DNA of 64,000 nucleotides from Pseudopyrenochaeta lycopersici (lineage: Eukaryota; Ascomycota; Dothideomycetes; Pleosporales; Pseudopyrenochaetaceae): positions 1,054,001 to 1,118,000 of the forward strand of contig NHZP01000001.1 in assembly GCA_003313425.1 (NCBI GenBank), given 5' to 3'. A program made the translations under genes and the position numbers. Under the pieces are notes generated by a model. The model searched no databases. It was not told the origin of the DNA and saw only the letters and a program-made list of their open reading frames with translations. Below are positions 1,751 through 40,907 of this stretch, one piece after another; the first letter of the stretch is position 1; each line of letters starts with the position of its first letter.

Positions 1751-1758
1751 TATATAAG
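1751..1758 (+). promoter_or_regulatory. TATA box of the MFS gene
   Basis: TATATAAG lies 76 bases upstream of the ATG at 1827, a normal distance for a fungal core promoter with a short 5' leader. A CGACGTCA element sits directly upstream (1741-1748). Confidence 0.55.
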
Positions 1759-1826
1759 GAAGAGTCGACTCGATAAACTCAACACTGGTCATTGAACCTA
1801 TCGAAAACCACGAAATCCAAACAGCC

Positions 1827-8360: not shown

Positions 8361-8718
8361 GAGTGCTTTAGGGAGATTCCGACGCCGCTTGATCATAGTT
8401 GGGTCGTTTCGACTGTTCGACTCCAAGCACGACCAGTGATTGCGGGAATTTCCTTAGACATCAGAAACTGCCTATGCAAATTCATCAGTACCTTTCATCC
8501 CACTTTTGCATGATAAGCGCGGAGCGTTACACGTGCAAGGGACCTGGCTATTAGATCATCTGACATATCTTTCTACAACGCTTCCCTTGATAACACTCTA
8601 GTCGTGTTATACAGTCTTAAGATGAGTATGATGTAAAAACTACATTTCGGACAAGTCTAAAAATATGTATTACCACAAATGTGTCTCAACTAAGATGGAA
8701 TAGGGAGTTACCCAAAAT
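8361..8718. other. Convergent intergenic region
   Basis: These 358 bases lie between two converging genes and presumably hold both 3' UTRs. Nothing else was seen. Confidence 0.6.
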
Positions 8719-10646: not shown

Positions 10647-13600
10647 CTATATCACATTACTCCCAGCACCGCTCAGATCCATCACAGAGCTCTCAGGTGC
10701 AATACTCGTCATGCGGCTTGCTCTTGAAATTGGCCGGTCAATCTCCATTGCCCCGCTCATCATTCTAACAACCTTCTTATTCTGAGGTCTTGCGACCAAC
10801 ACTTGCGCAGGACAGACCACAATCTCGTCCTCGCCTTCGCCAAAGTCATCTCCCTTCTTGACAACAAGCGGGAAGAGCACAATCTTGACTATCGCCCCCC
10901 GCGCTTCTAGTTCGTCATTGGACGTGGTCTCGCCAGATCGCTCGTTCATGAGGGAGGCGTTGAATGTTACTTTTGCGATCAAGTCGCCGTTGGTATCGTA
11001 CTCTGGTTGAAGCGGTGGGAGCATGATGTATTCAGCACGCTGTGTGCGCATCTCAATGGATAATTCAACTGCCAAGCGCATGACATTGCGGAGTGATTCT
11101 TGAATCTGCCGTTGCAGATGCGATGGCGGTGACAGGAGAGTAGAAAGCGTGCTGTAGATTTCATGCACAACAGCTTCGGTGTCTTGAGCGCGCTGTTGCA
11201 TGAAGGACTCTCTCCTTGAAAGGAGCGTAAGTGTAATAGCTCGCCATTGAGCAACAGCACGTGGTGGACCTGTTGAATTATTAGGATTAAATATCGTATG
11301 TAACGAACGTGTGTACTTACCAACTTCTGACAAGGTCTTTTCCAGCGACTTCAACTTTTGTCGCTGTTCTCTGTCCATACCAAAAAGGTATCTTGTGAAT
11401 ACATACTCCCAAATCATAGTCATAACTACAGACATAAACACATCTCGCCGCTTCACGCGGTCCGCTAATAGCGAATCGACATCAGAGCCATCAAGAATGG
11501 CATTGTCCAGACGAGTGTCAATCTTTTGACGCGTGGAAGTATCGAGCCGGGTGTCCCCTGAGATTTCTGATGACAGCCGGCAAGCTCGAGTATCAGAGAA
11601 CTTGCTGAACCGCAGCACCCATCCCTGGACATGTTGACATAGTTGCTGGCATGCGCTGTCAAAGTAGTCCTCATCGCGAATAGTAAGGAAGCTTTCGCTG
11701 GGTTTCTTAGACGCTAGGATCTGCTTCTGCAGAGTCTTGACTTGTTCCCGCGCGCCAGCAAGTTCTTTATTGAGGCGATCAATTTCAGCCTTGCGATCGT
11801 CCAGTACAATCCCTATCTCACCCCGAATCGCCTCCTCCATGCCTCTTGTCATCTGATTGTGCTTTGATCTCAGTTCCTCAAGCTCTCTTTGCGAAGATTC
11901 CCATTGCTGATGGACAAGCTGGCCTTCAGACTGAAGTTGTGCATACCGCTCATTGGTATCGTTGGTGAGATTGCGATTCGCTTCTGTGAGAGAGTTATTC
12001 AGCTCTGTCAGACGTGCTATCTCGTCCTGTAGTCTTTTCAGAGTGTCCTTGAGCTGCGCAATATCGATGTCCCTCTGATGAATTTCGCGATCACGTGCTT
12101 CTACAGCCTCGGCCACCAGCTGCTCGTCGACTTGGCGCTGGTGTTGTGCAGCCTGCAGGGAATCCTCGGCTCTGCTCTTTGCATCTTCAAGAGAGCTATT
12201 TTGCGCGGCAAGCTGGTCGAGTTGCGATTGCAAGTCTAATATCTGCATGCTTTGACGTTTGCGCACGCTTGGTGGACGCGTTGGTGACATTGGCGACCCT
12301 TGGGCCTCGCCCCATGCCTCCTGCAAAATATCGTTAGCATTCCACGACACAGCCGTCGCATCACCTTTTAGAGCTTACATAGGTTTCGGCCATGCTGGCC
12401 CGGCGACCCTTGCCTTCACCCCGGACTGGATCGTATTTTGACGCGGCTGCGATACCCGCGATGGCTGCTGTCGCTCCGGCCGCGAGCGCAATGCCTGAGA
12501 GGTTGGGTTGCGCGTTCTTAGCGTCGTGCGCACTGACCTCGCCAAGTCTAGAAGCAGATCGCAGGTCACCTGACGCGCTCCTATCCACTCGCCGTAAAGA
12601 GTGCGTGGAACGATTGCTTGCTGAGCTCAAGGGCCGTTCCTGATCAGGTGATCTAAGTTTTGCAATGTTGCTCATGGAACGTTCGCTCCGAACACTAGGC
12701 GAACGCTGTTCAGCCATGTGCTGCTTGATTGGATCTGTGCTTGGAGATGAACGTGGCAGTCGACGAGCAGGGCTGAGTGTCATCGATCGATCAACGCTTT
12801 CATGGACTTGATGCCATGGCGAATCTTTTGATGGAGTCTTTCTTCCGTCGGACGTATCGAGCACTGGTGGTACAACTTTACGACTTGACGCCGTCGGTGT
12901 AACTGGAGGTGGAGACTTTAGACGCTCCGAGAATGACCTTTGGCTTCCAGTGCGGCGGGCTGACTTCACCCCTCGGTCTGGGGCTCCTACATCGGTAATA
13001 GATCGTCCTTTTTTATGTAACGGAGAGTCATCCGGACTGGACTCTTTGATCGTATCAAGTTGTTGATTGCTGGGCGTGTGCACGTGTTTTGGGGTTGTTG
13101 TCGCCAACGCATCACTCTTTCCAGACTTCCTCTCGCTCGGATCACCAAATAGCGATTGGTATGGCTCCTTCTGCTTGACTTCCTTGGTAGGCGACATCTG
13201 ATCATAAAGTGACATCGAGTCTGATTTCTTGAACCTCCGCGCAGACTCGCTATTGTCTTTCAATGGAGCATGCATCACTTGAGGGTTATCATGAGCGGGC
13301 GTTCTGGGTGCGACTGCCGGTGATGTACCATATGCGCGTGTTGATGGCGAGGAATCAAACAAGTAAGAGGTTCGCTCCTTTGTCGCGTAATCTGTGCCAG
13401 ATGGCGTTGTGGCGTCCGCGAAAGTAGGGTATTCTGGAAGTGATGGGCTGTCTTCCACGTCATGATAGCCTTCCAGTGTCTGCGTGGTTTCGTTGAGGGG
13501 CGTTTTGGGCTCTTTGGATCGCCGCTTCTTCTCACGAACTGATCTCTGCGCTGATTCAGAATGAGCTTGTGAGGTGATTGGACTGTAGCTAGCATCATGA

Positions 13601-16600
13601 TAGCCGCTGTCGCGTGTGCTTTCCTGAAATTGCGGAGCAGCCTCTTGGGTTGGGGAATCAGCCACGTGTACAGCGCTATCACGGACCCCAGCAAAAGACC
13701 ATGCCGGTTCTATAGCTGGCGTGAGACCGCGAGTGGTCTTTGATGGGGCTTCCGGCGTATTTGTTATTGGACGCGAGGACGCCACATCGAATATAGAGCG
13801 TTCAGCTGCAGCTGGCATTTGCGATAGTGACGCCGTTTCGTTCGCAACAACTGGACTGCTTGAATAAACCTCTCCAGTGTGCAACCGTTTTCCTTCTGGC
13901 TGATCATCGTCCGAAGATACGGGATGTGCCCGTCGTTTGTGCGGTTCGTGGGCTGCAGGTTGTGCAACGTGGACAGACTTATCTTTGGCCACGTCTCTTG
14001 TCTGATGGTCTGATGGTAATCCGTGATCGAGATTTTCGTCTTTCTCATATATCTCTCTTTGCTCCGCTGAACCAAGCTCAACCTGAAGCTTGTCTTTTCC
14101 CTTCTTGCTCTTTTTGCCCCTCTTCTGTGATGGCGAAGCTTGCTCATCCTCCCCCTCATTGCAAATCCTTTCCTCGGTTGACTGTTGTGTTGCTTCTTCT
14201 GGTCGTAAAACCTGTGGGAAAGGATACTCGCCACCTTCGCCTCCCGTCAATGATCTCGATTCTTGATTTGATGTTGCAGATAGACTCGGTGTCTCATCAA
14301 TTGCTAACCTCTCATCTACACTCTTGTTGTCCCTTTCCACCTTTTTAGGTTTCTCTTTCTTCAAGTTCTTGCCCTTCTTCGGTGTTTCATCCCAGTCGAC
14401 TGTCTCTTGAGGCCGCATTGTTCCTACCGGATCTACTACCTGATTGAAGGTACTCATTGGCGCAGAAGACAAAGGCAAGGCTTCATCAAGCTCGATTCCG
14501 CGGACGGTGGAGTCAGCCGGAGTCTCAACAGCAAGAGGCACATCTGAGATAGTCTCGATCGCCGGAGTCTCAGCAGCTGCATACTCAACACTGTCTTGCG
14601 GAAGTGAAACTCGTTTCTTGTCCTTTTTGGTCTTCCTGTCTGTCTTCTTTGTCATTGCAGGCCATGCATCATCTTCCTCGTTCTTAGATGTAACTTGGGA
14701 GGCCTCAATTGGGGTAGCATATTGTTGGTCAGACGGGACGGTCATCAATTTGTTCCCAAAAGTCTCTCCAACCAAGCCAGGATCAAGACTTTTGTGCGGC
14801 TTGTCCACTGGCTCGTCTTTGAGTACAGTTTCTACGGGATTGTTGGCATCCACTGGCGTTTCGAGAAGAGATGCACGCTTTTTCTTTCCCTTCGCAGTCT
14901 TTGTTTTGGAAGATGACCAAAGTTCCTCCGGATCAGCAGCCTCAAGTATCCCGGGAGGCGTTTTCCGTCTCGAGAAAGTCGGGTCATTAAGTACATCCAG
15001 TGGATCGAATGAAATCGCATCAGTTGAGGCTAAAGCAACTTCGATGGGAGGTAAGACATCGGACTCCACGGGCTTTGTAGGTTGCATCTTCGGTGAAGCC
15101 GAGAGTGAAGAAGAACGACTCAAATTACCGAGCCTCGAAGTGTTCGCTCTTTCCTTAGCAGTTGCTACCTCATCATCCGGAGCGATGTCACGAACTTCGT
15201 GGACAGAAGCAGAACGGTGGAAGGAAGGGTCGTTGACTGCATAGCCAGGGTCAAAGCCAGACTCCTGGAGACTTGCTGCAACGGTCGCAGCAAATCCATA
15301 GTCTTCCTCTGGAGACTTTTTGAACGATTGATCCTCTGATGCAGCTCGTGATGCAATACGTGCCTCAGATGTCGGGAGTAAGACTGGCGTTACCGATCGG
15401 GATTGGTTCTCGTACTGTTCCGCAAGGTTCTTAACGCTCCCTGTGCCTTCCCTCCGTAGCCCACGTTCCGGGGTGAAGTCATCTTGTGTTGTACCTCGCT
15501 CAAACAAGGCGGCCAATCTGTGTTTCTGGGATGTCTTCTTCGTCAAAGGCGGTGGTTGCGGTTCCTGTGGAGACGTGGTGGATTCTCCAGGAGAGGTTGC
15601 TGAAGAAGCCTGAACGGCCATGTTTGTGTCTTTTACGGAATCTTCCTTGATCTCACTCGGGACGATTGCGCTTTGGCGTTGTTGTGGGCCATCAATGCCC
15701 TTCTCAGTTGGAGTTTCTGCTTTGACAGACACAGCAGGACTTTGGTCAGATACGATGTCAGTCTTCTTAGACTTCCGTTTCTCTTTCTTGGATTTCCTGG
15801 GAGCATCTAGAGTTTCTGGTTCTAGCTCTAAATTTGCTGCTCGAACTTCTTCCGCAATTTGCGGGCTACCTGCTGTAGAATCTTGCACAATGTCTCGAGA
15901 AGTAGAAGCAGGTTCATCCTGAGTGGGTTCGGTGGAGATCACAGTCGATTTGAGCTTCTCTGTATTGATCTTGTTCGCTTGTTGGACCTGTTCGAGCTCC
16001 ACTTCTACTTCTGGTTCGTTCACCAATACGGGCTCTGGTTTGATAGATGGTTCAGGCACTTCTTCAACCGAGGTAGAGAGAGATGCATCATCGAATGGCT
16101 CTCCCTGGGATACTGCAGCCAGCTTCGATTTGCGTTTCTGTTTCTTACTCTTCTTCGAAATGGGTTCAAACTCAGGGTCAGCGCCGCCTGTGGACGTATC
16201 AGCCACAATTGGGGCATCATTGGCTCTTGTCTCGATGTCGAAAAGTTGAGATTGCGTGTTGAACAGTACATTTGGTTGAATGTCTTGGGAGGCTTCTGGA
16301 AGAGGTATATCTGGTTTAGTCTCGGCCTGTGATTCAAAGTCTGTCGTCGGTAGTTCATCTACAGACTGCTCCGCTTGAACTGCTTGTTCTATGGGCTGGA
16401 TGGCTTCCGTCATTTCTACGTCTTCAGTCTTTTCAGCCTCGGTAGATTCATCGGTCGTCCCCTTTTTTTTGCCCTTTTTCTTGTCTTTCTTGCTCTGCTT
16501 GCGTGTCAGAGCAGGTGCAATGGTAGCCTCTTCATGTAAAGTGATTGGGACGCTGGTACCATCTTTGGGCTTGTCGTTGTCGATTGCTGAAGCATGCTCC

Positions 16601-19600
16601 ATTTGCTTAACCAGTGAGGGAGTATCGAGAGTGGTAGACTCTGATTCGGGAAACGATCGTGATACTGCATCTGATCTAGGTTCGACACCATCCATCTCTG
16701 TGAAATGGATATCATTTGGGTTCGGAATGTTGTCTCGTCGCGTTTCCACAAAGGGGGTATGCTGTTCTGTCGGCGTGTCTACAGCAAATTCAATATGTTG
16801 ATCCGCTTCTTCTGTCCTGCTTGGTTCAAGCTCAGATGGTGTATCAACAGCTACTGCGTCCGCTGATGTCGGCTCTACAGGAGGTTGCAATAAATTGTCC
16901 CTGACAGACGCCTCAATGACAGGGGCTTCAGGGACCATGTCCTCGATATGCTCTCGAATATTGGATGAAGGTGTTGCATCCATGGCTAAACCCTCAGGTT
17001 CGTCCCACACCAGGGCGTCTTTTTTGGCTTTTTTCTTGTCTTTCTTACTGGGCTTGTGGACTGAGGCTGGTGGTTCTTCGATAAGCACCTCTCGTTGCTC
17101 GATAATCGGCGGAAGCACATCGTCCTTAGTAGCCTCCTCAACCACTGAACTTGGTAGTGGTTCCGCGATCACTTCCGAGAATGTGTCTTCTGGAGTTGAA
17201 GTAGCCGCTTTAGCCTGCTTCTTCTTGTCTTTCTTGCTCAATTTGCGTGGCAGCGAAGGCCGCTCCTCGAGAGCTATGTCTTGGGTATCAGGCACACTGA
17301 TAGGTGGAGTTGCTTCCATAATCGGGGCAGCATCTGAGATGGTCGGCTCGACCACAGGTTCAGCGACGTTGCGAACCTGGGTAGGTCCGGTGTTAAAAGC
17401 GACCTCAGGCTGAAAGGTTGGACTGTCAAAGGTATGAACCGTCTGCTTAGCATTCTTCTTATCCTTTTTGCTGAGCCTCCGCGATAGCACTGGCAGTTCT
17501 TCTGCGGCTACTTCTTGGCTTTCTGTCGCAGCGACAGGCGGAGCTTCACTCTCAGTCACTAGAAGTTCTGTGGTTGGAGATTGCTCGATGTCCTTGGCCA
17601 CAACATCGCGAGACTTGCGCCCTAGGACGTCTTGCTTTGTTGTGGGGTCCACGGGTGTTGAAGAGTCTTCTGTTCGCTGCTCAGTGACTGGTTCTTGGAG
17701 GTCATTGCCTGACGTGGACAATTCAATCGGCGTCTCTGACGGTTCATCTAAACTGATAGCAGTTCGCTTTGCCTTCTTCTTGTCTTTTTTGCTTAGCTTG
17801 CGCGAAGGGACGTTAAACTGGTTTGGTTCCTCTTCGATAACAGGCGTTTCGACTATCTCCTTTGTCTCAACCGCACCTTCGGATTCAGCTGCGGGAGTTG
17901 TTGGCTCGAAATCGACAGTACTGCTTTTGCCCTTTTTCGCTTTCTTTCTATCTTTCTTGCTCAGCTTGCTCACAACATCAAACATTGACGGAAGCTCTGT
18001 AGTGGAGGATTCGTCAGGCTGTTCAGTAGCGTTGAAGGCATTGTCGAGTGCTTCAGACCGCAGCCTCAGATCCGCAACTTCATCTTGGACGGCTTTGAAG
18101 GGTGGCGAAATTTGACCTGCGTGGTGCTCTATTTCCCGATTCTCTTGCTTGGAAGCCTCGGCAGTGATGTTGAGAGAGGGTTGCTGCGGAGGATCATCGA
18201 TGACAGGAATGTCGCTTGGCTCAGGCTGGTCTACACGTTGAACATAATCCGGCGTAGGGGATACAGGCCTTTCGGTTTCAGTCTTCGTTTCCGTGACAAT
18301 TGGCAAGACTTCTTGGTTTTCGAAAAATTGCTCTTGCGGGATAGTTGGTGGGGTCTCAGTGAGCGGTGTAGCAGGTGTAGATGCCTCGCTTTCAGCCTCG
18401 TCGACGAGTATCTGGCCCTTCTTGCCCTTTTTCTTTTTGCCCTTTTTTGATGTAGAGCGAGGTAGAGGCAGCTCAGAGCTACCGACTTCAATCGGTTGCG
18501 GGTCAGGCTCTTGAATCGGTTCGGGGACAAGCGACGCCGCTTCAATGACACTCTCCAGACCAGAAGTTGGGAGTGTCACGGGTACTGGCTGTGTGTCCAA
18601 GATTGGCTCAGCGATGGCCTCTTGTGGTGCATCGGGCTGAACGTCGCTGGCTTGGACATCAATGTGCTCAGCATGATCGTTTACAGCAACCTCATCGGTA
18701 GTTGCAACGGTTGGCTCCATTTGTAGTTCAGCCGAAGCTGCATCCTTAGACATCGACTTACTCTTCCTGCCCTTTTTCTTCTCTTTCTTCGAAGTTTGAG
18801 GAGCAACGCCCAACTCAGCTTCAGTTTCCTGTCTTGTAATGTATTCCGGCTCCTGTGAGTCAATGGTGGTCTTGACGAGGGGTTCAGACGTCGATGGCTC
18901 GAGCACTTGCTCTGTGTCTTTTGGCTGCTCGGCGGTCTGAATCGGTTCTTCATCAACAGGCAGAGCGAAAGTGGGTTCGAGAGGCTGCTCGCGGGCAATG
19001 GACTCAGCGAGAACAGGTGTCTCAAGCTTCTCATTCAGCTGTGCCAAATCTAATGAGCTGTCTGCGGCTTTCTTTCCCTTTTTACCTTTTTTAGAGGTTT
19101 TGCGGCTCAATGACATGGAAACGTCACCCACTTCGACTGCTCTTAGCGCCTCAGCATCGATAATGGGCACGTTTTCAGGTAACACGGCTACTTCTGGTTC
19201 GTCAGTCTTGGGATTTTGGCCGTTTTCCTGTTCGGAAAGCTGCTCTCTGTGACCAACAAGTGGCGGAGAAATGTCATTTGCATATCTCGTCTCAGACGAC
19301 GGGTCCTCAACCTCGTTCTCGGCGTCGATCCTAAGATCGGCGAGAGGCGCCGAATCGGTGGTGACTGACGCAGCCTGTGTTACTCCAGCGGCATGAGACT
19401 GCTCAGCAATCTCTGAAGATTGGGTTTCAGTGGTATCAGGCGCATCGAGTGCTTCAGATTGCTTCTTGACCTTCTTGTCTCTCTTTGGCTTCTTCGCCTT
19501 CTTCGAAGTAGGCGCTTCCTCGTCTTCAAGAGCAACCTCACGAGTTTGCTGATCGGTCGAAGTAGCTGTGACTTCTTCGGCTGCGGGTGGCGATTCATTT

Positions 19601-22600
19601 AGGATGGCGTGCGGTGGCTCAAGTTCAGGCGGACGTTCTGGCATGGGCGCTGGGTCATTGTGAATAGTCTGTTGGATTCTGCCGATTTGAGCAAGCTGTG
19701 TCGGTTCCGGGGCTGGGGGGACTTCCGCGATTTCGTGTTCGATTCCTTGTTTATTCTCGGGGATCGAGCTTTCGTCAAGAGCTACTGCTTCCTTCTGCTT
19801 CTGAGCCATCTTTTTTGCCTTCTTACTGAGCTTGCGGCTGAGGACAGGCTTCTCAACGTCAACGTTCTCCGGAAATTCCTGCAACGGCTCTGGTTCATTC
19901 ATTTGAACAGACTCCTGAGCCGGTATGTTCCGCCCAGGCTCGGTCACTGGTGTCTGAAGAACATCTTCAGAGGCTTCGGGAGTTTCTGTGGCGATGAGCT
20001 TGACAAATTCAGCAACAGGAGTTTTGGATTCCAATTTCTTGACTTTAATCTCCTCCTCCATGTTCTTGGAAGTGGGTGGCACCTCTTCATCGATCGGCCA
20101 TTGTTCTTCGACTGCAGGGGCTGTGGAAGGCGAGATATCCTCGTTCTTTCGGTTCTCTTCAACAAGCTCAACGGATTCTTGGATGTCGGCTGCGGGTGCA
20201 TCGACCGTCACCAAGGGGGTGACGACGCTGTTGGCGTCGGCTATGGAGCTGTCATCGGGAATTGGCGTGGCGGTACCGGACTTCTTCCCCTTTTTCTTGG
20301 CTTTGGTTGTAGAAACAGGCAATGCCCAGTCGTCAACTATCGTCTTAACCTCCATAGTAGGTGTAAGTGTATGCGGATCCTCTGCCTCATTCGGCTGCTC
20401 CTCAGCGACTTTCTCAATCGGCTCTGGAATATCGGCAAGCCGTGGCACAATGTCCTCAGCGGGTGCACTGGCAACATCAGCCTCAACAATAGGGAGATTA
20501 TCAACTGTTGGCGTTGCTGTGCCAGATTTCTTTCCCTTTTTCTTGCTTTTCTTCTTGGATGCGGACGATGAAGCCAGATCAACCGAAGGTTCTGGTTCTG
20601 CCACCGATACGGCCGCTGGTCCAGCCTGCTCGACTTCGCCCTGCTCTTGGGGAGAAGATTCTTCTTGTACGGCAACAATTGGAGTACTGTCAAGGCTGAT
20701 GTTCTTTTCTGATTCTGCTACTAGCGAATCCGTGGTCATCTCAGGCGTTACAACGACTGGGACTGGGGTTGCTGTTCCGGACTTCTTTCCCTTTTTCTTG
20801 CTCTTTTTTGTAGATGCGGATTGCGAGGGCCACTCCTCAAAGGAAGCATCGGGCTGTGCCGCAGGCACGATTGTCGCATCGAGCGGCTCAATTTTGTGAA
20901 CATGAGCCACAGCGTCTTCTTGGAGCGTAGCAAGCGGAGTCTCACTGGACACAACCTCCTTGCCTGTTTCGATGGGTTCAATTGCAGATTCTTGGGCGGT
21001 CTCTTGCAAGACTTCTGAAATGTCCTCGTTAATTGGCGTTGTAGCACCGGACTTCTTCCCCTTCTTTTTGCTCTTTTTCGTGGAAACGGATGGTGAGGGC
21101 TCCTCATCAAGTGAGGGCTCCTGTTCGACTACGGGCAAGGAAGTATCGTCAGCATGGCTGCTTTCCCCTGTCTCCTTCACCAACGATGTCTCGTGAGTTG
21201 TAGGAGTTTGAGCGTCGTCTGCCGCAATTTGCTCACCGATGAGTTGTGCAAACGGGAGCTCTTGAGCGTTCTCGGGTTGTGGCATTGGCAGCTCCTCGGT
21301 AGTAGGAGTAGCGGTACCTGAGTCTTTGGCTTTGGCCTTCTTGGCCTTTTTCTTATCTTTCTTCGATGTTGAGGTCAAGAACTCAAGTGATGTATCAGTT
21401 TCGACTGCTGGGGTTGCGAGTGGTTCAGCATTGGCAATGTCCACAGCTGCAGTATCCAACGAAATGTCGAACATGGCCTTGCTATCAACTTCGTCTTTGG
21501 TTTTTGCATCAGCCACGATCAGAGGCTCCTCATCTACCTGTTGAATTTCCGGGACGACTTCGATAGTTGGCGTTGCTGTGCCCGACTTCTTGCCTTTCTT
21601 TCCTTTCTTTTTGTCTTTCTTCGATGGGGTGAAGCCCACAGTTTCGATGGGCTGCGTTGGCTCGACAATCTCTTCGGGTAAAGACTGGCTTTGTTCCTGT
21701 TGGGAAGGTTCAATGCTCTTGTCAATGGGCAGAGCATTATCATGCTGTGTTAGGAGCGGGACTTCGACGGTTTGTTCAGACTCCAAAGTTCTCTCAGTAA
21801 TGGCTAGGTTGTCTTGCGGCGTCGTGGCCTCCTCAATCTTGTCCTTTGGAAGCTCAGAAATAACTTCTTCAGCAGGCGTCGATGTTTCAGATTGCCCTGT
21901 CATTTTTTGAGCGATTTCAATGTCTTTATTCGGTAGCAGAGACCCACGGTCCTCCTCGGTGGGCTGCTGAATGTCCTCAGAACTCACGACGGCGACCTGG
22001 ACATCATGTGATTGCTCGGGCAAAGTATCCTCGACAGGTGGTTCCCGTATGATAAGTGGTTCTTGTGCTACTTCTTCAACCTGAGGTGAAATTGGGTCCT
22101 TCGATTGAACGGGCTTGATTTCTGGCTGGGCTTCGATCGAAGTGTCGTGACTGGCCAGCATTGTGCCTTTCCTATTTTTCTTGTTTTTACTAGACAACAA
22201 CGATCTCCACTGATCAGGCGAAGGATCTGCCATCTGCTGAGGCTTCATGGAGGTGCGTGGAGTCTGCTTTGCAACAAATGCTGGCTTGGGTTCTACTGTT
22301 GGGATAGCTTCAGTGATATCGATACTTGGCGATTCAACGGACGACTGCTGGACCGTAACTTCTCGAGATTGGCCAAAATCCTCGTCACGTTTTGCACTTT
22401 CGACTGGAGCCGAAATAGAGTTCTCGGGTTGGGTTGCTGGGATAGTATCGTCAAGCTTGTCTTCGATGGGAACGTTGCGAACAGGTTCCAAGATACTGGT
22501 GTCTTGCGCTGGCTCTTCCAATGTCGTTGCGCTCTTACCCATCTTTCCTTTCTTTTTCTTTTTGAGCGATGCAGACATACCCTGCTCGTCTCTGTCTACC

Positions 22601-31600: not shown

Positions 31601-34600
31601 GGCTCAATTGGTGGTTCGCTGGGAGCTTGTTCTGGTTTCTTCTCTTCGGCAGAAGGCTTCAGCTTTTCAGTATGGTCTTCAAACCAACCATCCACAGCCA
31701 TAGCAGTATCTGTCTCTTTTATCCTCTGGTGATCTTCAACAGTGAGTTCTCTCGGTGGCGAAGCACTAACGTCGATACTTTTATCTTTTGATCCTTTCTT
31801 GCCCTTCCTGCCCTTCTTTGTGCTTGATGAAGTGGCTCGGTTGAGAGTTGGGCGAACCAACTCGGTCGCGGGCGGTTCGACAGGTACTGACTGCGCCGCG
31901 GCATGCATGGTCTCTTCGTCGAGGTCTCCACTCATGAAATCGTCAGATTTGTATCCAACTGGTGATGGGGACCGATGTCGTAATGCAGCAGCGGTTAAAC
32001 CACCTATTGCTGTGCCAAGTGCAGCGCTTTGGAGCCGGGAAGACATGTTCCTTGGAGATGAGTCCCCACTGCGAGCAGAAGCTATATCACCCATTTTCGA
32101 ATCATCAAGAGGCGCACTCGGGGCAAGACCTGCCTTTGGCCCAGGCAGCTCTTCATATAATTTACCACGCTCTTCAGCCTTCACATGCTCAAGTGCAGCA
32201 GCAAGGACATCGTGAGGAGGACCAACACTCTCCACAGAAGCATGCGGAACGCCATCAGGAAAGTCAGAAGCCTTTGGCGTTGCCTGCCCAGAATCATCGA
32301 CCTCCTCAACTTCACGGTAGGCGAGCTCAGGGTGCTGCAGCTCAGGTCCAGGCTGCGGAGATATGAGGTCTGAGACAACGCTGAGAGGATCGAAAAAAGG
32401 ATCATCTGACGTCACACTGGCGCTCATCTGAGGTGACTCGAGAGCAGATTCATACTCCACGTCTGTCTCTGTCGCAGACTCCGCTCGAGAGGGGCTGCCA
32501 CTTGAAGGTAGAGCTGGCAATATTTCATCAATCTCATCAGATTTACGGTTGCGCTCGACAAGATACAATGGCCGGAACTCCCGGGACGTCTTGAACTCAG
32601 CAGAGTGAGACTTGGCATGACGAGTACGAAGAGGGGAGCTCCCAGGAAGTGGGCTAGACGCCGGCTCAGGCTCAACGTCACGCTGCACGCTAGGAGATCC
32701 AGGAGGCTTTCGAAAGCGGATTGGGACGGCCGTTGAAGACAATCGACGTTCAGCAAAGTGCGATGATGGGCGTACAGTTTCTGGAGATCGAAGTGGAGAA
32801 CTTGGTCTTGAGAGTGGTAGAGGAGGGAATTCATCCGGAAAAGCTTCGAGCTGCCATGGTTGCAGCCCTGTGAGGCGTGTCAACAGAGCGCGACTATCTT
32901 CGAACGACAGTTCAGGTGGTGTACGTGGACGATCGATACTTCCAGGTGCGGTGAGGAAGCCGTGATTATTGTCAAGTGTTGGTAAGGGAAACTCGGGCCG
33001 ATCTCCAGGGATGATGCCACTATCTTCACGCGCCTGAGTCGCAGGCTCACTTGCGGGCAGTGGAGTTGGAGTGGCGTCGGCCACTGCCCGATTGCCTAAA
33101 AAAGACTGCTGTTCTTGGTCTTGTTGTTCATCGGCATACGAAGGCGAGATTCGAGGGTATGAGCGATCCTATAAACACAACATCAACATTCATTCTAATT
33201 ACATTCAAAACAGTAATGCTATCGCGCATAAGAAGAGCGATGTACCTTGTCGTCATATGAATCCCTCCTGTCACCTTCCCCTCTTTCAGAGCGACTGCTT
33301 CTCTTCTCGCGACGACTACTACTCGAAATGGTTGAGCGAACATCATCGTCGTCTGAACCGTACGTCGAACCGCGGTCCGACCGATGCTTCCTCCTACGAT
33401 GCTTGCGTTCTTCATCCTCATCATCCTTCGACTTGGAAGACTTGCTCGAGGTTTCTGCTAAGTTCTCCTTCGACTTGCTGAACAGTCCGAACAAACCACT
33501 AGAACGCTTTTCCCTTTCTTTCTCTTTCTTCGAGAACCGATCGTCATCATAGCGGGAAGAAGATGAAATGATGGAAGCGTTGTCATCATCACCATCCCGT
33601 CTTGACTTTCTTCTTGACGACTTTCGGTCATCAAAAAGATCCCCTGGTTCGGATGCCGCAGACGAGCGAGACCTAGCTTTACTCTCGACAGATCCATCTC
33701 TCTCACTTCCTCGTCTCTTGTGCTTACGTCTTCGCTCACCATTCGCTTCAGAGCGAGCCTCAGAGATCGTGGACTTCGTATCCCAATCGTCGGAACGCTC
33801 ATCAGTGTCACGACGGCGATGCCTCCGCTGTCGTTCACTGCCCTCGTCGAATTCGTAGCCTCGATCACGGCTCGGCTCTCGGCTCTCGGACTTTGCCTCC
33901 CGACGTCGACGTCGCCTTTCTTCGCGATCTGGATCATCGTATCTGCTGCTTGAAGAGATGACTGATCTCACATCTTCGTCATCATACTTGCTACGTGATT
34001 TTGTGGCGTCGTCATCGTATCTGCTTCGCGTGATTGAGTCCTCCGTATTGTACTTAACATCGTACTTGGGCGACTCGAGGGATTTGGCTTTAGACTTCTC
34101 TCTTTCTTCTGACCCCGCCGAAAAGAATTCATCCGAATCTCGCTCTGCCGGCTCCTTGCGTGGTAAATCATCGGGAGCGTAATAACCGGAGTCGTACACA
34201 TCTCGAGCGATGGGCGGCTCTGCTGGAATGGTAGCTGCAGAACTGGTGAACACCTGGGGAGCCTCAACAAGAGCCTGTTCGTTGGAGGCAAATGAGTGCC
34301 TCTGAGCTCCCATGTAATCGTCGTATTTCATCTCTGTCCTGAGCGGAGATCCTATCGTTGGCGAGAACTTGCCACTACTGTGTCTTTTATCCTTCTTCCG
34401 CTGAGGTGTCTTGACATCGGTTAGTTCAGCATCCTGAGAAGTTGTGCTGGTTGTATTGGGCTGGACGCTGTCATCGAGCGTGCGGACGCCATTGGGAGGA
34501 GATGCCGGAGCTTCGCGATTGGTGTGTTTGGCTGCAGACTCTAGCTTCTGCCTCGCATGTTCAAGGTCTGAAGCCATCCTGTCTTGGTCTTGCTTCATGG

Positions 34601-37600
34601 CGGACCCCACAAGAGCAGCGAAACCGCCAGCCATGGCTGCTGCTGCTACTTTGCTGCTACTGCTGCTGCTCTCACCGTACCGAGAGGCGTCTTTCACATG
34701 CGTGCCTTCACGGCTCGCTTCAGCAGATCGTGAAGGCTCGATGTCCCTGATGTCACGTTCGACTGTTGGAGTAGACAAGGGACTAACATCGCTCTCCTCC
34801 CAGCTATCTACACTAAGTCGTTTCGCTGCCTTAGCCTTTTTCTTCTTGTCCTTCTTACTCAGCTTGACCTCTGGCTTAGGCTCAGCTTCTTTTACAGGCT
34901 CTGGGATGTAGGCAGGAACAGGAGGTGGCTCAACACGCCTCGAGACCTCTTGCGCCGCTATGGTATGGTCAGTACTCTTGCCATCTTTCTTACCCTTCTT
35001 ACTCTTTTCCGTCGGAGCCTCCCAGTCTTCCTGGACAGGTTCATCAACTACAGGCGGTTCGTCAAAACTGCCAGGTATATGCATCGATACGGGCTCTGCA
35101 GTTACCTCGCCCTCCACGAAGCCCGAGGCCTTTGTCTTTTGATCTACCACTTTGCGCAAGTCCAGGTCAGAAACAGAAGTGTAGTGAGGTGACTGATAGA
35201 CACTGCTAGTTGAAGGGATTGACGAGGCCACAGTCGACGGAGCAACAATCGATGATGCTACAGTCGATGGCGCAGCATGCGAGTCCGTGAAGGGATTGCT
35301 GATGACGGATGAAGTGTCTTGCTTGTAGTCGCGTTCGACACTCCCATCACGCTCATCTCGAGAACGCACCGCTGCCGTTGTCAGAGCCGCAGCCGTGGCG
35401 GCAGCAGCGGCTGCAGCCTTGGCTTTCTTCTTGTCCTTTTTGCTACTCTTCTTCGCAGCAGCGCCAACGATACTATCCCATGTGGAATCGTCCTGATCTC
35501 GAACGAACTGCGTACTTGGGGCAATCTCCTTATTTTCGGGGGCCTGGACTATCTCTTTTGGTTGTTGAGGCTGATAAGTGGAAGTCTTCCGGCCAGACTT
35601 GGGTGATTCGTGCTCAATGGTAACCTCATCTTGTGAATATTTCTTCTCTGAGTCCTTGAAGTCCCCGTCGGAGACGAACTGCTCGCGAAAGGAATCAGGA
35701 GTTTGCACTTCAAAGTGATGGAACTGATTTTCGCCCCAGCTGACTCTAGAACCTGCCCGACTTCCTTTCTCCTGCTTCGGCTCTGTTGCTTCTTCTCTAA
35801 TGGCCTCAATATTTGGTGACGGGGGAACAGACACGCTCCGAACAGAAGGTGCGCGACTACCGGGAGGCGTAGGCTGAATGAGATTCAATGAAGGCACAGA
35901 CCAGGATTCTCCCAAAGCAGAACGACCGTCCTTAGTGGCGGTGAATGAATACGACACAGGGTATGGAGGGACCATTGGTTGACGAATAGCGATTTCGTCA
36001 TGAGCTTGAGAAATGTGAAGATCAGTGGCGCCTTCATTGGGATCCACCGGGCGAACCTTGGGCAGATTGTCCTTTTCCAGAAGCTCTTTAGGCGCGAAGA
36101 AATCGGCTTGAGACACTGGCTTCTCGTTATATCTGTCCTCCCAGTCCCGATACACGTCATGAACGCTCTCGCGAGGGCGATCGCGGGCGGTGTCCTTCTT
36201 CTTGAACATATTTGGGTCAAAGATCTCATCATCGAAGTAATCCTGTTCGATTTTGCTTGGCTCAAATGTCTTGATACTGCTAGGCTCGTAAGTTTTGACG
36301 GTGCTTGGTTCATAAGTCTTCACCTTATCCGAGTCGTAAGGCCTGACATTGCCGGCTTCGTAGGTCTTGACATTATTGGGCTCGTAGGTCCTGGTGTTGT
36401 TTGGCTCAAATGACTGAATACTGCTGGTAGCTTGAATTGGTTTAACAGCACTTGGCTCCGTCGTCTTCACAACTGAGGGTCTGCGGTCACGGTCGCGGTC
36501 TCCTACTTTTGTCTTCTCTTTGCTTTTGTCCTTGTAAGATGAGATCGCCGCACTGGTGATTGCTGCTGCTGCACCAGCAGCTACAGCACCCGCGGCGGTT
36601 GACTTCCAAGTATCAGGTTGGACAATGTCACGTTCGCGTTCTTCGAGCTCTTTCTCTTTACGACGCACATCTGTAGCAACCGAGCTCACTGAGCTCCCAG
36701 TCCGCTGTTGTTCAAGTTTTCGACGCTCTCGGTCGCTCTCATATCGGCTGGAATACTCTTGCGCCTCACGCTCTCTTCGCCGACGCTCAGTGTCTTCTCG
36801 AATTTCAGCTTCACGCCTCAAGGCTTCGAGGCGCTCAACTTCTCGTCGCTCAGTTTCACGACGCTCTCTCCGCATCTGCTCAGCTTCCGCCTCGAGATCT
36901 GTTTTACGCTTAGCCTCGGCTCGAGCATCACGCTCTTGACGGTCCCGCTCTTCTGCCTCTCGAGCGTCGCGTGCTCGCATATCTTCCTGTTGACGACGTC
37001 GCTCGTCTAAACGTCGTTCACTTTCTATCTTGGCCAAGCGTTCAGCCTCCATGTATTTACGGGCTTCTTCTTGCTGGCGTTGCAACTCGCGTCGGCGGCG
37101 CTCTTCTTCTTGACGGGCTTCATCTTCACGGCGAAGCTGCTCTCGGCGGCGGTCCTCATCTGCTCTTCTTGCGTCTTCATCTCGCCGTAACTGATCCCGT
37201 CTGAGGCGCTCCTCTTCTTCTCGACGGGCCTCATCCTCTCGACGAGACTGATCTTCCCTCCTCTGTTGATCACGGCGGCGAGCCTCTTCTTCATCGCGTC
37301 GGGCTAGCTGCTTTTGCCGCTCACGTTCTTCTTTAGCAGTCTGCTCCTGCGTCAGATTAAAGCGGACGTTACCAGATTCACTGGGCGGCCGATCGCCGCT
37401 CTTTGCTGCAGCGATTGCTGCAGCTCCAGCGGTCGCTGCAAGTCCTGCAATAGCTGCATCTCGTTTCCAAGATGAGCTTTGAATGGGTGATGAGTTGGCA
37501 CGGCGAGGGCCAGGAGGATATCCAGAGTACTGGGGAGTTTGTACAATGACGTTCTGGGTCTGGAATTGAGCAGGATGTGGTGACTGAAAAGGTGCTTGCG

Positions 37601-40600
37601 AGAAAACTGGGGGCCCAGCTGGGACGACATAGCCAGGCTGAGAGGATGGCTGCGTAGAATATATGGCTCCTGGAACCTGATGAATGGGCTGAGGCTGTTG
37701 AATGCTAATCGTTCCTGGTCCTGAAGTGATAAGAGGCTGAGGTGTCGGAACGGAGCTCGTACGTCTAGCATCGAATGATGCAGTAGGGTCATTTGGAGCA
37801 ACGGGATAAACAGACTGCAATGTCTGCACGCTACTCGATTCGCTGTCGTGACGTCCGAGGCCTGTCCCTATTGCTGCTCCAGCGAGTGCACCAGCGGCGC
37901 CTGCGGCGGTGGGACCAATAAGTGAGGTGCTGGCAATGTTGTCGTAGAGGTTATCAGAAGATCTTCTCTTCTTTTTACCAAAACCCCATCGCCAGCCCCA
38001 TTTGCTCGTCCCCGAGCCGTTTGATGCTAATGACTCCTGGCTCTTTCCATTCCGCCAATCACCGTAGACAAGGCCAGCATCGCTCGACGAATCAGAAGTT
38101 CCATCATCGGGCAAATCTTCCCATTCATCGTCACCGTAGCGTGAGCCAGGTCGGGGTCGATCGCTGCTCTTCCGTCCATGCCGATGTTCTTTCACTGCCA
38201 CTACCTCACTCTTGCGCTTGCTTGAAGACTTCCCGGCTTTGGCGGCTGCGATAGCTGCTGCAGTAGCTCCCAGGCCTGCCAGTGTAGCCTTAAGGCGCTC
38301 CTCCGAATTTCTTCTCTTTGGTGATGTTCGCCTACGCCTTCTAACGTAGCCAGTGCCAAACGCCATCTCGGAGTCGGAGGAAGACGTTGAAGCATTACCA
38401 AAATTGAAGAAGCCCTTCTTTTTCTGTTTGTGGCTGGTCGTTGACGGTTTTCGCTGTTTTTGTTTCGGTGGTGGTGCAGCAAAGAAGCCCCCCAGGAAGC
38501 CGCCCTGGGACTGGTGCGTTTGTCCGATCTCAATAACGGAAGCTCCAGAGACTGAGCTTCGAGAGGACTTGTGTCTTAGTTGCTGGGATCTTCTTCTCCG
38601 GCGCTCATCGTCACTACTGTCTCTCCGATGATGTTGCACGTAGACCTTCTTGGGAGATCGCGAGCGACTACGGCTTCGATGCTTTTTCTTTGTAGCAGCT
38701 CCCAAGACGGCCCCTGCCAAACCCGCACCAATTGCTGTCCCGATTAAGCCAGACTTCCCATTTCGAGAACCAGAGCTTGACCGCGACCGTGATCGCGAGT
38801 GGCGTCGAATGATCTTATAATCCTTCTTATCTTTTGTTACGCCGACAGACATTTGAGACATGCGGTCTCGTGAACGACTGCGGCGACGGATCTCAGAATG
38901 ACCGTAACTGTAGCCTTTCCTATCTTGTGACCGGCTGCGGCTTCGATGAGAGGTTTTCGTGCGAGGGTCGCGTCCAGACTTGATACTATAAGTATCGTCG
39001 AAGTCGTTCCGGCCTGCGTTCCATACTGCCTGCCCGGCTTTGGCAAGACCAATCCCTCCAAGCCCCGCAGCAACCCATCCTGCAGCACTATTGTTTGCTC
39101 GCTTCCGTCTCTCGTCGCCCGAAGAGAGTGAGCTGTGAGACTTCTTTTCTTTTAATGAGTATCGAGATTGCTTCTCGATACCGCCAGAGGGACGCATGTA
39201 TTCACTTGAACGCCTCTTATTGTAATGATGCTTGCGCGGCGCGTCATATATGCTGGATTGGGGGTCGAAGCAGCCTCTGCAAACACCGATATACTCCGTA
39301 TACTCCTCCATCTTCTGGACATCTTCGTGATCCTTCCACCAATCAACGAATCTGGAAACAGGGCCGGTATGCTGATGCCGCTGAGTCATGCCACCGGCCA
39401 TAAATGGACTTGGTGAGGGTCCAATACCATTATACTGTTGGCCGGGGAACGCTCCTGGAGTCGAGGTCGAGTAGCTATGCGGGGTGTGCTGCGAATTCGA
39501 ATGTGAATTATGTTTATGTAAACCATACGCTGCCAGCCCGGCAGCTCCAGCGGCGTAGAGGCCAGCATTGCTGCCAGATGACTGCTTCTCAGGCTTTGCA
39601 GGGCGAGGTGGCTTTTGAGGAGGCACACCTTCAGTGTCATATGTCGCCTGAGAGTAGGCTGGCGGATAGCCACTGCCGTCAGTAGTAGTGGCAGAAGGGT
39701 TTCCAGCTTGATAGTACAAAGAAGCAGTGGATCCTCCGACACCATTAGAATTAGATGCTGAATGATGAACACTCGAGGAGCTATAGCTCGTGGTGTGCTG
39801 TTGATTGTTAGACGAGCTATGGCCGATGGCGTAACCAAGGGCAGCTCCGCCAGCCAGTGCAGCTGGACCGAATTTGCTTGGTTTGACGGGCTTGGCTGGT
39901 TTGTCGGATTTGGAGGGTCGTGGAGGTTTCTGGGGCGCAGGGCCCTCTTCGATGAAAGCACCAGGCATTGTCGAGCTCGAGGGTCGTGGAGGCTTCGAGG
40001 GTGGAGTGTTCATGCTAGTACCATAAAAGTCTGCAGCAGCGCCCGAACCAGTGTCGGCGACCGGGTTGGCGTGCGCTGCCGCAGCCATGAGATGAGGAGT
40101 GTCTTGACCTATGATGACCGAGGGTGGTTGAGGCCTAACGCCGGGCTGCTGGTGGACAGACTCGCCCTGGTCATTGTAAAAGTCTGCAGCTGCTCCAAAC
40201 GGATTGCCTCCGGGCAAGGCACTCGTCGCATACTGCACGGGATCCTGACCGGGGAACTGGTCCTGCACGTGGCTCGACATTTCCCCTGAGTGTGGTCGAC
40301 TTCCTGGTGGCAGAGCGCCTGACATCATGGGCGCTCCTGCCTGGCCTGGAAACGGTGAGAAGCCCTCGCTCGCAATCTGGCCGCTGAAGCTGCGCTGCAC
40401 GGGCTTTGGGCTCTCTACGATGTCGCCTCTGTAGCCGCCGGCCTGCGACATGCTCCCTGACTGCTCTGAGCGCGTAGATCGCCGCTTCTCTGTCTTCCTA
40501 TCCTTCTCTTTGTCTTTACTCTTCTTCCTGTCCTTCTCGTCACGGTCTCTGCTGCGAGACCGGTCGCGTCGTGTTGTTGATACAGAGGACGCTGCATAGC

Positions 40601-40907
40601 TGGTAGGTCGTTCATCGCGCCTACGAGAATAGCGCTCGTCTCTTGGGTCCTCGTAGAGGTCATCATTTGCCCGTGAACGCGGCACGTCGTCGAAAGCAGT
40701 GACAAAAGATGCAATCGAGGAAGGTGCAGTGTCGCGTCGCGATGGCTTGCGGGTCGAGGTGGACGAGACCACTGATCGGGTATCCAAATCTCTCTCGCGC
40801 TTAGAACGCGTAGAGTCACCAGTTCGGCGACGGCGGGCGTCGTCGTCCTTGTCTCTGTTAGAAGCAGAGGAGCCGCTATCGCTCTTGCCCGTAAACCTGC
40901 TCCACAT
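10647..40907 (-). CDS. Leashin, fused giant Woronin-body tether, 10,024 aa
   Basis: Four exons on the minus strand: 40907-33246, 33168-12379, 12320-11321, 11269-10647. The introns are 77, 58 and 51 nt. All are GT-AG, and the second has a GCTAAC branch site. All phases agree, giving 10,024 residues (about 1.1 MDa). In Neurospora, N-terminal leashin sequence binds the Woronin-body membrane protein WSC, and other parts attach to the cell cortex or septal pore rim. Seen here: an N-terminal RS- and Gly-rich region with a conserved Trp/CxxC block (about 515-575), an ER/K helix (about 1192-1398), an octapeptide repeat (about 1496-1552), and conserved blocks at about 2645-2675 and 2748-2775. About fifty lysine-block modules follow to about 8900, then conserved Ser/Pro-rich sequence. 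A coiled coil (about 9511-9690) and a globular end complete the protein. The C-terminal part matches the family long annotated as involucrin repeat protein. ATG 40907 is the first Met of the conserved start. Small in-frame introns could remain hidden in the long exons. Confidence 0.9.
14090..31830 (-). repeat. Array of about fifty lysine-block modules in leashin
   Basis: A module of about 85-140 residues recurs about fifty times. Each has an acidic/Pro-rich linker and then a block of the type SKKDKKKKKGKKGK. On the plus strand this appears as recurring TTCTTGCCCTTCTT-like tracts. The blocks fall into neighbouring subclasses: KKGKKGKSVDIEPST (about 25.8-27.6 kb), KAKKAKRxSxAE (about 23.2-25.1 kb), KKGKKSGTATP (20.2-21.6 kb) and LSKKDKKKAK (about 16.4-18 kb). 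That pattern suggests local duplication followed by divergence. Third codon positions differ freely between copies, so protein sequence appears to be what is conserved. Three further blocks lie in exon 1 (about 34.8-35.5 kb). Confidence 0.85.
20258..21630 (-). repeat. Six-copy GTATP sub-array
   Basis: Six consecutive modules carry the block KKGKKSGTATP or a close variant. The copies lie near plus-strand positions 20276, 20521, 20775, 21046, 21315 and 21580, so the spacing is 245-271 nt. This is the most regular and most similar part of the array and looks like its most recent expansion. Confidence 0.75.
36251..36420 (-). repeat. Octapeptide tandem repeat in leashin exon 1
   Basis: About seven copies of an eight-residue unit with consensus [VI]KTYEPSx encode residues about 1496-1552. 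The central Tyr is replaced by Phe in the first and last copies. The unit is 24 nt long on the DNA. It sits between an Ala-rich segment and a more ordinary region containing DWEDRYNEKP. Confidence 0.8.
36716..37335 (-). other. ER/K-rich helix region of leashin
   Basis: About 205 residues (about 1192-1398) consist almost only of Arg, Glu, Lys, Asp, Gln and Ala, in patterns such as RRDEEEARRRDQQRRED. Opposite charges recur at i to i+4. This is the signature of a stable single alpha-helix (caldesmon/myosin-X type), or less likely a coiled coil, because hydrophobic a/d positions are mostly missing. Confidence 0.7.

What the first reader, a model, noticed from the sequence alone, without database searches (positions are those of the whole stretch)
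10647..40907. Unsplit leashin gene encoding about 10,000 residues
Three very long minus-strand frames are separated by gaps that each carry correct GT-AG introns with matching phases, so they form one gene of 10,024 codons. The N-terminal and C-terminal halves correspond to LAH-1 and LAH-2, which are separate adjacent genes in Neurospora. The fused state is considered ancestral and is linked to Woronin bodies attached directly to the septal pore rim. It would be among the largest fungal proteins known.
Basis: partly seen in the sequence, partly recalled or inferred. Interest (0 to 1): 0.9.

Follow-up and report, generated by a model that had tools for sequence, protein, structure and literature searches.

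The report
Giant unsplit Woronin-body tether gene
This fungus carries one 30-kilobase gene predicted to make a 10,000-residue rope that ties a wound-plugging organelle to the pore between cells; the protein is of a known kind, but its supposedly shapeless middle holds dozens of copies of a lysine-rich motif shared with related fungi.

Summary
On the minus strand, 40907-10647, open frames of 2,554, 6,930 and 557 codons join in phase through GT-AG introns at 33245-33169 and 12378-12321. A third in-frame intron (11320-11270), absent from spliced relatives, gives 10,024 residues. Homology makes it leashin (Lah), the Woronin-body tether, in a Pleosporales-like fungus; HEX-1, the Woronin-body core protein, is in the same genome. 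Two relatives have uninterrupted frames across junction 1, so the two long pieces are one reading frame. 'Unsplit' is supported, not proven: Neurospora lah was also predicted as one 10,821-residue frame yet is two transcription units. The Neurospora device, an 869-codon alternative-frame exon, is absent here (longest alternative frame 207 codons). Fused leashins are common; the size is high but not unique (7 of 48 relatives have a longer exon-B stretch). The new part is the linker, called poorly conserved or nonconserved in print: 37-47 lysine clusters about 120 residues apart, flanked by Ser/Thr and often preceded by acidic residues plus Trp/Phe, a pattern found in relatives of several Pezizomycotina classes but weak in the two aspergilli tested. 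I propose a phosphorylation-tunable polyampholyte tether.

The parts
10647..40907 (-). leashin (lah) gene model, 10,024 residues after removal of three introns; about 1,094 kDa, pI 5.0, net charge about -422
33246..40907 (-). exon A, residues 1-2554, begins MWSRFTGKSD; start agrees with P0026, P0052, P0053, P0054, P0055
38628..39410 (-). conserved N-terminal core, residues 500-760 (69% identity to P0026, 62% to P0038, the 2 of 51 proteins that matched)
33169..33245 (-). intron 1, 77 bp, phase 0; weak donor GTACAT; no counterpart in relatives P0026 and P0030, which read straight through
12379..33168 (-). exon B, residues 2555-9484, one uninterrupted frame
14073..31008 (-). lysine-cluster array in the linker (about residues 3275-8920): 37 strict or 47 relaxed K/R clusters in acidic surroundings; Ser/Thr on both flanks of 34 of 47; 13 of 47 preceded by Trp/Phe at -8..-4
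12321..12378 (-). intron 2, 58 bp, phase 0, GTAAGC...TGCTAACG...GCAG
11321..12320 (-). exon C1: coiled-coil-like stretch (weak Pfam and keratin matches only) and first part of the septal-pore-binding domain
11376..11441 (-). hydrophobic helix VFMSVVMTMIWEYVFTRYLFG (residues about 9778-9799), homologous to the segment of A. fumigatus Lah reported as membrane-spanning
11270..11320 (-). intron 3, 51 bp, phase 1, in frame and without stop, so invisible in the open-frame list
10647..11269 (-). exon C2: end of the C-terminal domain and stop codon

Best explanation
It is the unsplit leashin gene of a Pleosporales-like fungus. The N-terminus holds Woronin bodies (via the membrane protein WSC in Neurospora) and the C-terminal domain binds the septal pore rim; about 6,400 residues of linker, taken to be disordered from its composition, set the reach. 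In this linker, acidic stretches alternate with lysine clusters flanked by Ser/Thr. I infer that the array makes the tether a loose, self-attracting (polyampholyte) spring whose length or stickiness is tuned by phosphorylation beside the lysine clusters: held long while kinases and ATP are active, able to collapse and help draw the organelle to the pore when they are not. Shown here: gene structure, homology, array and its recurrence in relatives. Shown or reported by others in related fungi: both end functions, elastic tethering, ATP dependence of pore opening, kinase-dependent Lah phosphopeptides. Inferred: a single transcript here, and the tuning mechanism.
For: Gene model and introns. C-terminal domain 81.5-93.8% identical in the 18 of 26 matches that span it, N-core 62-69% in 2 matches. 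Continuous frame across junction 1 in two relatives. No Neurospora-type alternative-frame exon: longest other minus-strand frame inside the gene 207 codons against 2,607 bp in Neurospora. HEX-1 in the same genome, E 6.8e-77 to the solved Woronin body protein, ending SRL. 124 of 250 fetched relatives carry N-core and C-domain in one chain. Lysine clusters against shuffles: 33 against 0.02, shuffle maximum 1. Ser/Thr on both flanks of 34 of 47 clusters, 9.5 expected from composition. Trp/Phe at -8..-4 in 13 of 47, 3.7 expected, 2,000 shifts reach at most 10. Published end functions; ATP needed to keep pores open in Zymoseptoria; Lah among the septal proteins with the biggest YakA-dependent phosphorylation changes in A. 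fumigatus.
Against: No transcript data. Intron 1 has weak splice signals. Neurospora shows that one long frame can hide two genes. Several relatives are annotated as separate N- or C-terminal models (for example Lindgomyces P0052 and P0035); the breakpoints vary, but three of eight C-terminal models begin within window residues 6053-6213. The aromatic half of the motif is weak in the two aspergilli tested (2 of 14, 1 of 15 clusters) and in P0230, P0244, P0031 and P0007, although Aspergillus tethers Woronin bodies at the pore. Ser/Thr-Pro sites after clusters are not enriched beyond chance: 23 of 37 against 16.6 expected, random maximum 28. My toy electrostatic score gave the native linker more net repulsion than shuffled ones and less with flank phosphates, which does not support collapse on dephosphorylation. 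A 2017 review calls the titin parallel speculative.
Confidence: 0.82

Rival explanations
1. One long frame but two transcription units, as in Neurospora: an internal promoter in exon B makes a separate LAH-2-like protein and the N-terminal transcript ends early.
For: Neurospora precedent with a predicted single 10,821-residue frame. Relatives are often annotated as separate N- and C-terminal models, and three of eight C-terminal models begin within window residues 6053-6213.
Against: No long alternative-frame exon. Breakpoints otherwise vary: C-terminal models align from window residues 3956 to 6694 and N-terminal ones end at 4180 to 5504, as gene-caller fragmentation would give. 124 of 250 relatives are single models or frames with both ends. 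The split was shown in Neurospora and proposed for its close relatives.
Confidence: 0.12
2. The protein's main role is a Spitzenkorper or septal scaffold (LAH-2-like, recruiting clients such as the kinase COT-1), and the lysine array is a client-docking array rather than a spring.
For: [quoted passage not shown] A repeated acidic-aromatic-lysine-serine motif looks like a multivalent docking site. The toy electrostatic score does not favour a spring.
Against: The conserved N-terminus and the presence of HEX-1 argue that tethering is kept. The two roles are compatible.
Confidence: 0.3
3. The lysine clusters are only a by-product of low-complexity drift in a disordered linker.
For: The linker is biased in composition, and units vary in spacing (CV 0.60-0.66; not more regular than the 1% null quantile).
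Against: Clusters are almost absent from shuffles. Aromatic and Ser/Thr positions are fixed relative to the clusters and recur in three groups of relatives: aromatic at -8..-4 in 72 of 217, 245 of 348 and 119 of 231 clusters against 16.4, 42.4 and 26.9 by shifting.
Confidence: 0.1

Closest known systems
Aspergillus fumigatus Lah (relative P0168, 5,515 residues; 'involucrin repeat protein' in other Aspergillus records)
   Same: Single polypeptide; N-terminal region found by the N-core search; same C-terminal hydrophobic helix with the VV pair; lysine clusters in the linker (15 in the whole protein by the strict count).
   Different: About half as long; Trp/Phe before clusters in only 2 of 14. 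The paper's residue numbers 5303/5304 do not fall on VV in this record, which has it at 5280-5281.
Neurospora crassa leashin locus (LAH-1 and LAH-2)
   Same: Giant acidic tether of Woronin bodies; LAH-2 C-terminus reported to share the membrane segment.
   Different: Two transcription units, alternative 2,607-bp exon, repeats LPVDEDLDLLPALPES and PEEVELPASP; neither repeat stands clearly above shuffles in the window. Sequences not compared directly.
Pyrenochaeta sp. MPI-SDFR-AT-0127 BKA66DRAFT_503092 (P0001, 5,514 residues)
   Same: Closest relative found: 75% over the tested part of exon B, 94% over the C-terminal domain.
   Different: Its annotated model starts at window residue 4488, so the N-terminal part is not in the model.
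Titin PEVK region
   Same: Functional analogy only: long charged disordered spring, proposed by Ng et al..
   Different: No homology claimed; PEVK-like tetrapeptides are rare in the window (2 in the linker).

Membership tests
Leashin (Lah) | Conserved N-terminal region that binds Woronin bodies | tested here: met
   Sequence conservation only: residues 1-344 57% and 500-760 69% identical to P0026, whose N-terminus finds A. fumigatus P0168. Binding not tested; Neurospora LAH-1 not compared.
Leashin (Lah) | C-terminal septal-pore domain with hydrophobic segment | tested here: met
   Homology; segment at residues about 9778-9799, same helix in P0168. Whether it spans a membrane is unresolved: it holds E and R, and the structure model was poor.
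Leashin (Lah) | Coiled coil before the C-terminal domain | tested here: inconclusive
   No coiled-coil predictor was run; only sub-threshold coiled-coil matches in Pfam and keratin chains.
Leashin (Lah) | Very long acidic linker rich in P, E, L, S | tested here: met
   Exon B is E 11.8, P 10.3, S 10.2, L 5.9%; linker net charge -506.
Leashin (Lah) | Occurs with HEX-1 in Pezizomycotina | tested here: met
   HEX-1 at G000:C1:2383355-2383555 and the frame around it in L002; six Mpv17/PMP22-family matches, none assigned to WSC.
Unsplit leashin | One continuous coding sequence from N-core to C-domain | tested here: met
Unsplit leashin | One transcript and one protein | not testable with these tools
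   No RNA or protein data.
Neurospora-type split leashin | Alternative-frame exon of about 2.6 kb ending LAH-1 | tested here: not met
   Longest other minus-strand frame inside the gene 207 codons.
Neurospora-type split leashin | Internal lah-2 promoter | not tested
   Needs reporter or transcript-start data.
Neurospora-type leashin repeats | R1 and R2/R3 repeat arrays | tested here: not met
   Best ungapped scores: R1 36 against a maximum of 34 in 20 shuffles, one site; R2/R3 29 against 32. No array of either.

The most novel reading that the evidence does not exclude
The linker of leashin, called poorly conserved or nonconserved in print, is really a conserved multivalent array: [acidic]-[Trp/Phe]-x(3-7)-[Ser/Thr]-lysine cluster-x-[Ser/Thr], in up to about 35 copies per protein in several Pezizomycotina classes but weak in the two aspergilli tested. 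It makes the tether a phosphorylation-tunable polyampholyte spring, which would explain how ATP and kinases hold Woronin bodies off the pore.
Probability: 0.2. Interest if true: 0.75.

Novelty: new member of a known kind. Interest (0 to 1): 0.4.

Why it matters
As a gene this is an ordinary, if very large, ancestral-type leashin. What matters is the linker: how Woronin bodies are held near an open pore and released on wounding is open, and the review I saw in passages calls tether contraction speculative. A recurring array of lysine clusters bracketed by phosphorylatable residues gives a concrete region to delete or tag, and points to fungi outside Aspergillus as the systems in which to look. 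The window also shows how giant genes of this kind end up in fragments in databases.

Tried and rejected
R1 and R2/R3 Neurospora repeats: no array. C-terminal structure from eight sequences: mean pLDDT 45.6, pTM 0.37, so no fold search was run. Screened charge score: native 0.041 per residue, flank-phosphorylated 0.027, shuffled 0.011 (SD 0.003), which I put down to repulsion inside clusters, and not in favour of my spring. Ser/Thr-Pro enrichment after clusters: not beyond chance. Charge autocorrelation: weak peak at about 85 residues, 0.105; I claim no strict period. Spacing of clusters is not more regular than the 1% null quantile (CV 0.657 against 0.630; null mean 0.897). Rfam: 0 matches in the window. 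The genome-wide GTATGT pattern served only to learn the genome's size; its counts (832 and 982) do not exceed the reversed control (948 and 1,012). A profile-HMM count of units failed on option errors and was replaced by cluster counts. Database names such as Titin or involucrin repeat protein were treated as composition labels.

Limits of the counts: the three relative groups are 8, 12 and 12 proteins that I picked from 250 fetched, with class membership from my own knowledge; P0007 and P0025 (Pleosporales group) are unnamed and placed by similarity. Relatives share ancestry and are not independent. Linker bounds in relatives were set at 28-90% of length, partial models included. One search covers 233 of 251 proteins (4,600 residues or more, the window included). 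In one search the linker length and charge come from 24 of 32 intervals. One search compared 17 relatives; P0031 (begins near exon B), P0003, P0007 and P0038 are not in the breakpoint lists. Searches scored only the 739, 725 and 994 candidates sharing most words; two searches listed 120 of 127 and 120 of 518 hits, so '124 of 250' is not a frequency in nature. In one search the anchors of distant relatives may be misplaced.

Full report
What was checked. The window is part of a 62.7-Mb assembly in 188 contigs. Splicing at 33245-33169 and 12378-12321 keeps the frame in both cases (phase 0) and gives 10,041 residues from ATG 40907 to the stop at 10647. It is there: 11320-11270, 51 bp, GTAAGT to ACAG with a CCTAAT branch-like site, in frame and free of stops. 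In the eight-row alignment four relatives lack the 17 residues it would encode and three carry unrelated residues at that place. With three introns the protein is 10,024 residues, about 1,094 kDa, pI 5.0, net charge about -422. Over the exon-B region the five other frames examined hold 110 to 521 stops each.

How sure the joins are. Intron 2 has good signals and intron 3 is supported by homology. Intron 1 is the weak one: donor GTACAT, no CTRAY branch site, and four in-frame, stop-free GT-AG choices in the stretch tested. Homology supports the join itself: P0026 (7,214 residues) and P0030 (6,156) match the window on both sides of junction 1 with no insertion, being some 20 residues shorter there; both end in residues that fit a read-through of intron 2, so I take them as unspliced frames that lack intron 1. 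P0038, an annotated model, has extra residues at the place. The start codon agrees with five relatives that begin MW-x-[RK]-[IL]-T-G (P0026, P0052, P0053, P0054, P0055).

What it is. The closest relatives are Pleosporales proteins (placement from their names, by my knowledge). Pyrenochaeta P0001 is 75% identical over the last 1,031 residues of exon B and 94% over the C-terminal domain. The family reaches A. fumigatus (P0168), aspergilli annotated 'involucrin repeat protein', Aureobasidium, lichens and a leotiomycete. The published anatomy of leashin fits: N-terminal Woronin-body binding, C-terminal septal-pore targeting with a coiled coil and a hydrophobic segment, and a long acidic linker (PMC2690989, text parts 1-4 of 6; PMC5345055, part 1 of 5 and passages). 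The hydrophobic helix with its VV pair is at 9778-9799 in the window and at about 5277-5295 in P0168; the paper's residue numbers for that pair (5303, 5304) do not fit this record. The same genome encodes HEX-1, at E 6.8e-77 to the solved structure and ending in SRL. For exon C the genome search returned the window itself and a 28% partial match on contig 5. Exon A could not be searched there.

Is it unsplit? The gene model is. The transcript is not shown. Ng et al. first had a single predicted Neurospora protein of 10,821 residues from a gene of about 30 kb and then showed two transcription units, with an internal promoter and an alternative 2,607-bp exon in another frame. I tested the one part of that device that sequence can show: no other minus-strand frame inside the window's gene exceeds 207 codons. 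Among the 17 relatives compared, eight C-terminal models align from window residues 3956, 4488, 5279, 5565, 6065, 6212, 6213 and 6694, and five N-terminal models end at 4180, 4312, 4864, 5314 and 5504. The spread fits gene-caller fragmentation better than an inherited split, but three of the eight begin within about 6053-6213, which I cannot explain. Of 250 fetched relatives 124 hold the N-core and the C-domain in one chain in that order, with lengths 4,663 to 7,613, median 5,941.5; the window is the longest of the 125. Measured between two anchors in exon B (window 2610-9484, 6,875 residues), 48 of 250 relatives have both anchors, 7 of them with a longer stretch (up to 7,468), median 6,318.5. 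The window is thus near the top of a continuous range, not apart from it. Ng et al. gave 5,936 to 7,480 for the predicted proteins of other Pezizomycotina in 2009.

The linker. The middle of leashin is described as poorly conserved and PELS-rich, and a paper on A. oryzae names a 'large nonconserved region' in its title; I saw only that title in reference lists (the paper is not held). In the window this region holds a clear pattern. By a strict rule (7 of 10 K/R, 5 K) there are 37 clusters between residues 2700 and 9200, median spacing 121.5; by a relaxed rule (6 of 10, 4 K) 47. A third rule (8 of 12) gives 33, and 200 shuffles of the same residues 0.02 on average, 1 at most. The blocks read like SKKDKKKAKKGKRxS; in 24 of 32 intervals (40-200 residues) the linkers average 104 residues and charge -19. 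Ser/Thr lies within three residues on both sides of 34 of 47 clusters, 9.5 expected from composition; in the three relative groups 132 of 220, 171 of 353 and 113 of 233 against 44.6, 68.0 and 47.9. Trp or Phe stands 4 to 8 residues before 13 of 47 clusters in the window, 3.7 expected when the whole set of clusters is shifted round the linker (largest of 2,000 shifts 10). In the relative groups the figures are 72 of 217 (16.4), 245 of 348 (42.4) and 119 of 231 (26.9), each above the maximum of 2,000 shifts. Position by position, Trp is enriched about 14- to 33-fold at -6 and -5 in the relative groups and acidic residues peak at -9 to -7; in the window itself, of the two aromatics, only Phe at -5 passes the listing threshold. 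Over 233 proteins of at least 4,600 residues (window included, 12 copies) the simple motif occurs 11.7 times on average against 0.05 in shuffles; 211 have three or more and 2 have none. The two aspergilli tested are poor in the aromatic half (2 of 14 and 1 of 15 clusters), as are P0230 (1 of 14), P0244 (2 of 15), P0031 (4 of 35) and P0007 (3 of 28). That may be why it was overlooked, but it also counts against a universal role.

How it may work. A disordered chain of 6,350 residues would have an end-to-end distance of about 95 nm in good solvent, and 9,484 residues about 120 nm (scaling law and constants recalled). Published Woronin-body distances from the pore are 100-200 nm and the tether is described as elastic. 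In Zymoseptoria, ATP keeps Woronin bodies out of the pore, and kinases or a conformational change of Lah were suggested (PMC5656841, passages); a review by the same group calls the titin parallel speculative (PMC5745230, passages). In A. fumigatus, Lah is among the septal proteins with the biggest phosphorylation changes when the kinase YakA is lost (PMC11166925, passages); the sites are not in the text I saw. Neurospora LAH-2 is a scaffold needed at the hyphal tip by the kinase COT-1 (PMC7275032, passages). My proposal: lysine clusters attract the acidic stretches, phosphorylation of the bracketing Ser/Thr weakens that attraction, and so kinase activity sets tether length or stickiness. The array and its brackets are shown; phosphorylation of these sites and the mechanical effect are inference. 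A crude screened-charge score went the other way: the native linker scores more repulsive than shuffles, and flank phosphates lower the repulsion. I think like charges inside a cluster dominate that score, so I give it little weight, but it is not support. A docking array for clients is a serious alternative.

Literature check on novelty. Searches of the held library: leashin with Woronin (19 papers), leashin with lysine-rich (0), involucrin repeat protein (2), leashin, nonconserved region and Aspergillus oryzae, two of three (17), LAH-2, Woronin and polyampholyte, two of three (4), PEVK with Woronin (1), and Woronin, hex1, Lah, phosphorylation and septal plugging, four of five (8). In the listings and in the parts or passages that I saw of nine papers (PMC2690989, PMC5345055, PMC7275032, PMC5656841, PMC5745230, PMC10023807, PMC11166925, PMC13026334, PMC9882315) there is no description of the lysine-cluster array. 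I read none of them whole, and Han et al. 2014 is not held; the review says, citing that paper and Ng et al., that Lah carries titin-like repeats, so part of the pattern may already be in print.

Verdict. The identification as leashin is sound. 'Unsplit' is the best reading but unproven at the RNA level; the fused state is common and the size lies near the top of a continuous range. The recurring lysine-aromatic-serine array in the linker is the part worth following.

Noticed in passing
11270-11320: Third, in-frame intron of the leashin gene that an open-frame scan cannot see; three relatives carry unrelated residues at that place, as unspliced frames would.
   Followed up: yes
42154-43038 (-): Upstream of leashin lies a cleavage-stimulation-factor subunit 2 homologue (RRM, hinge, C-terminal domain); its open frame ends about 1.2 kb from the leashin start.
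   Followed up: no
43762-45461 (-), 47522-48208 (+), 50399-54508 (-): Copper amine oxidase, AA9 lytic polysaccharide monooxygenase and a large ABC transporter with two ATPase stretches.
   Followed up: no
1758-9477: Other flank: MFS transporter, fungal transcription factor domain, short-chain dehydrogenase.
   Followed up: no
G000:C5:1573001-1573489 (+): A 678-codon open frame elsewhere in the genome matches part of the leashin C-terminal domain at 28% identity, E 4.5e-5: a possible distant relative of the pore-binding domain.
   Followed up: no
L002:562-1725 (+): HEX-1 homologue whose open frame extends upstream with a His-rich stretch and ends in SRL.
   Followed up: partly
residues 9778-9799 of the protein (11376-11441): The segment published as membrane-spanning in A. 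fumigatus contains Glu and Arg and lies in a highly conserved helix; a buried helix of a soluble domain is possible. The eight-sequence structure model was too poor to decide.
   Followed up: partly
window residues about 6053-6213 (exon B): Three separately annotated C-terminal models in relatives (P0005, P0011, P0170) begin near the same place in exon B; unexplained.
   Followed up: no
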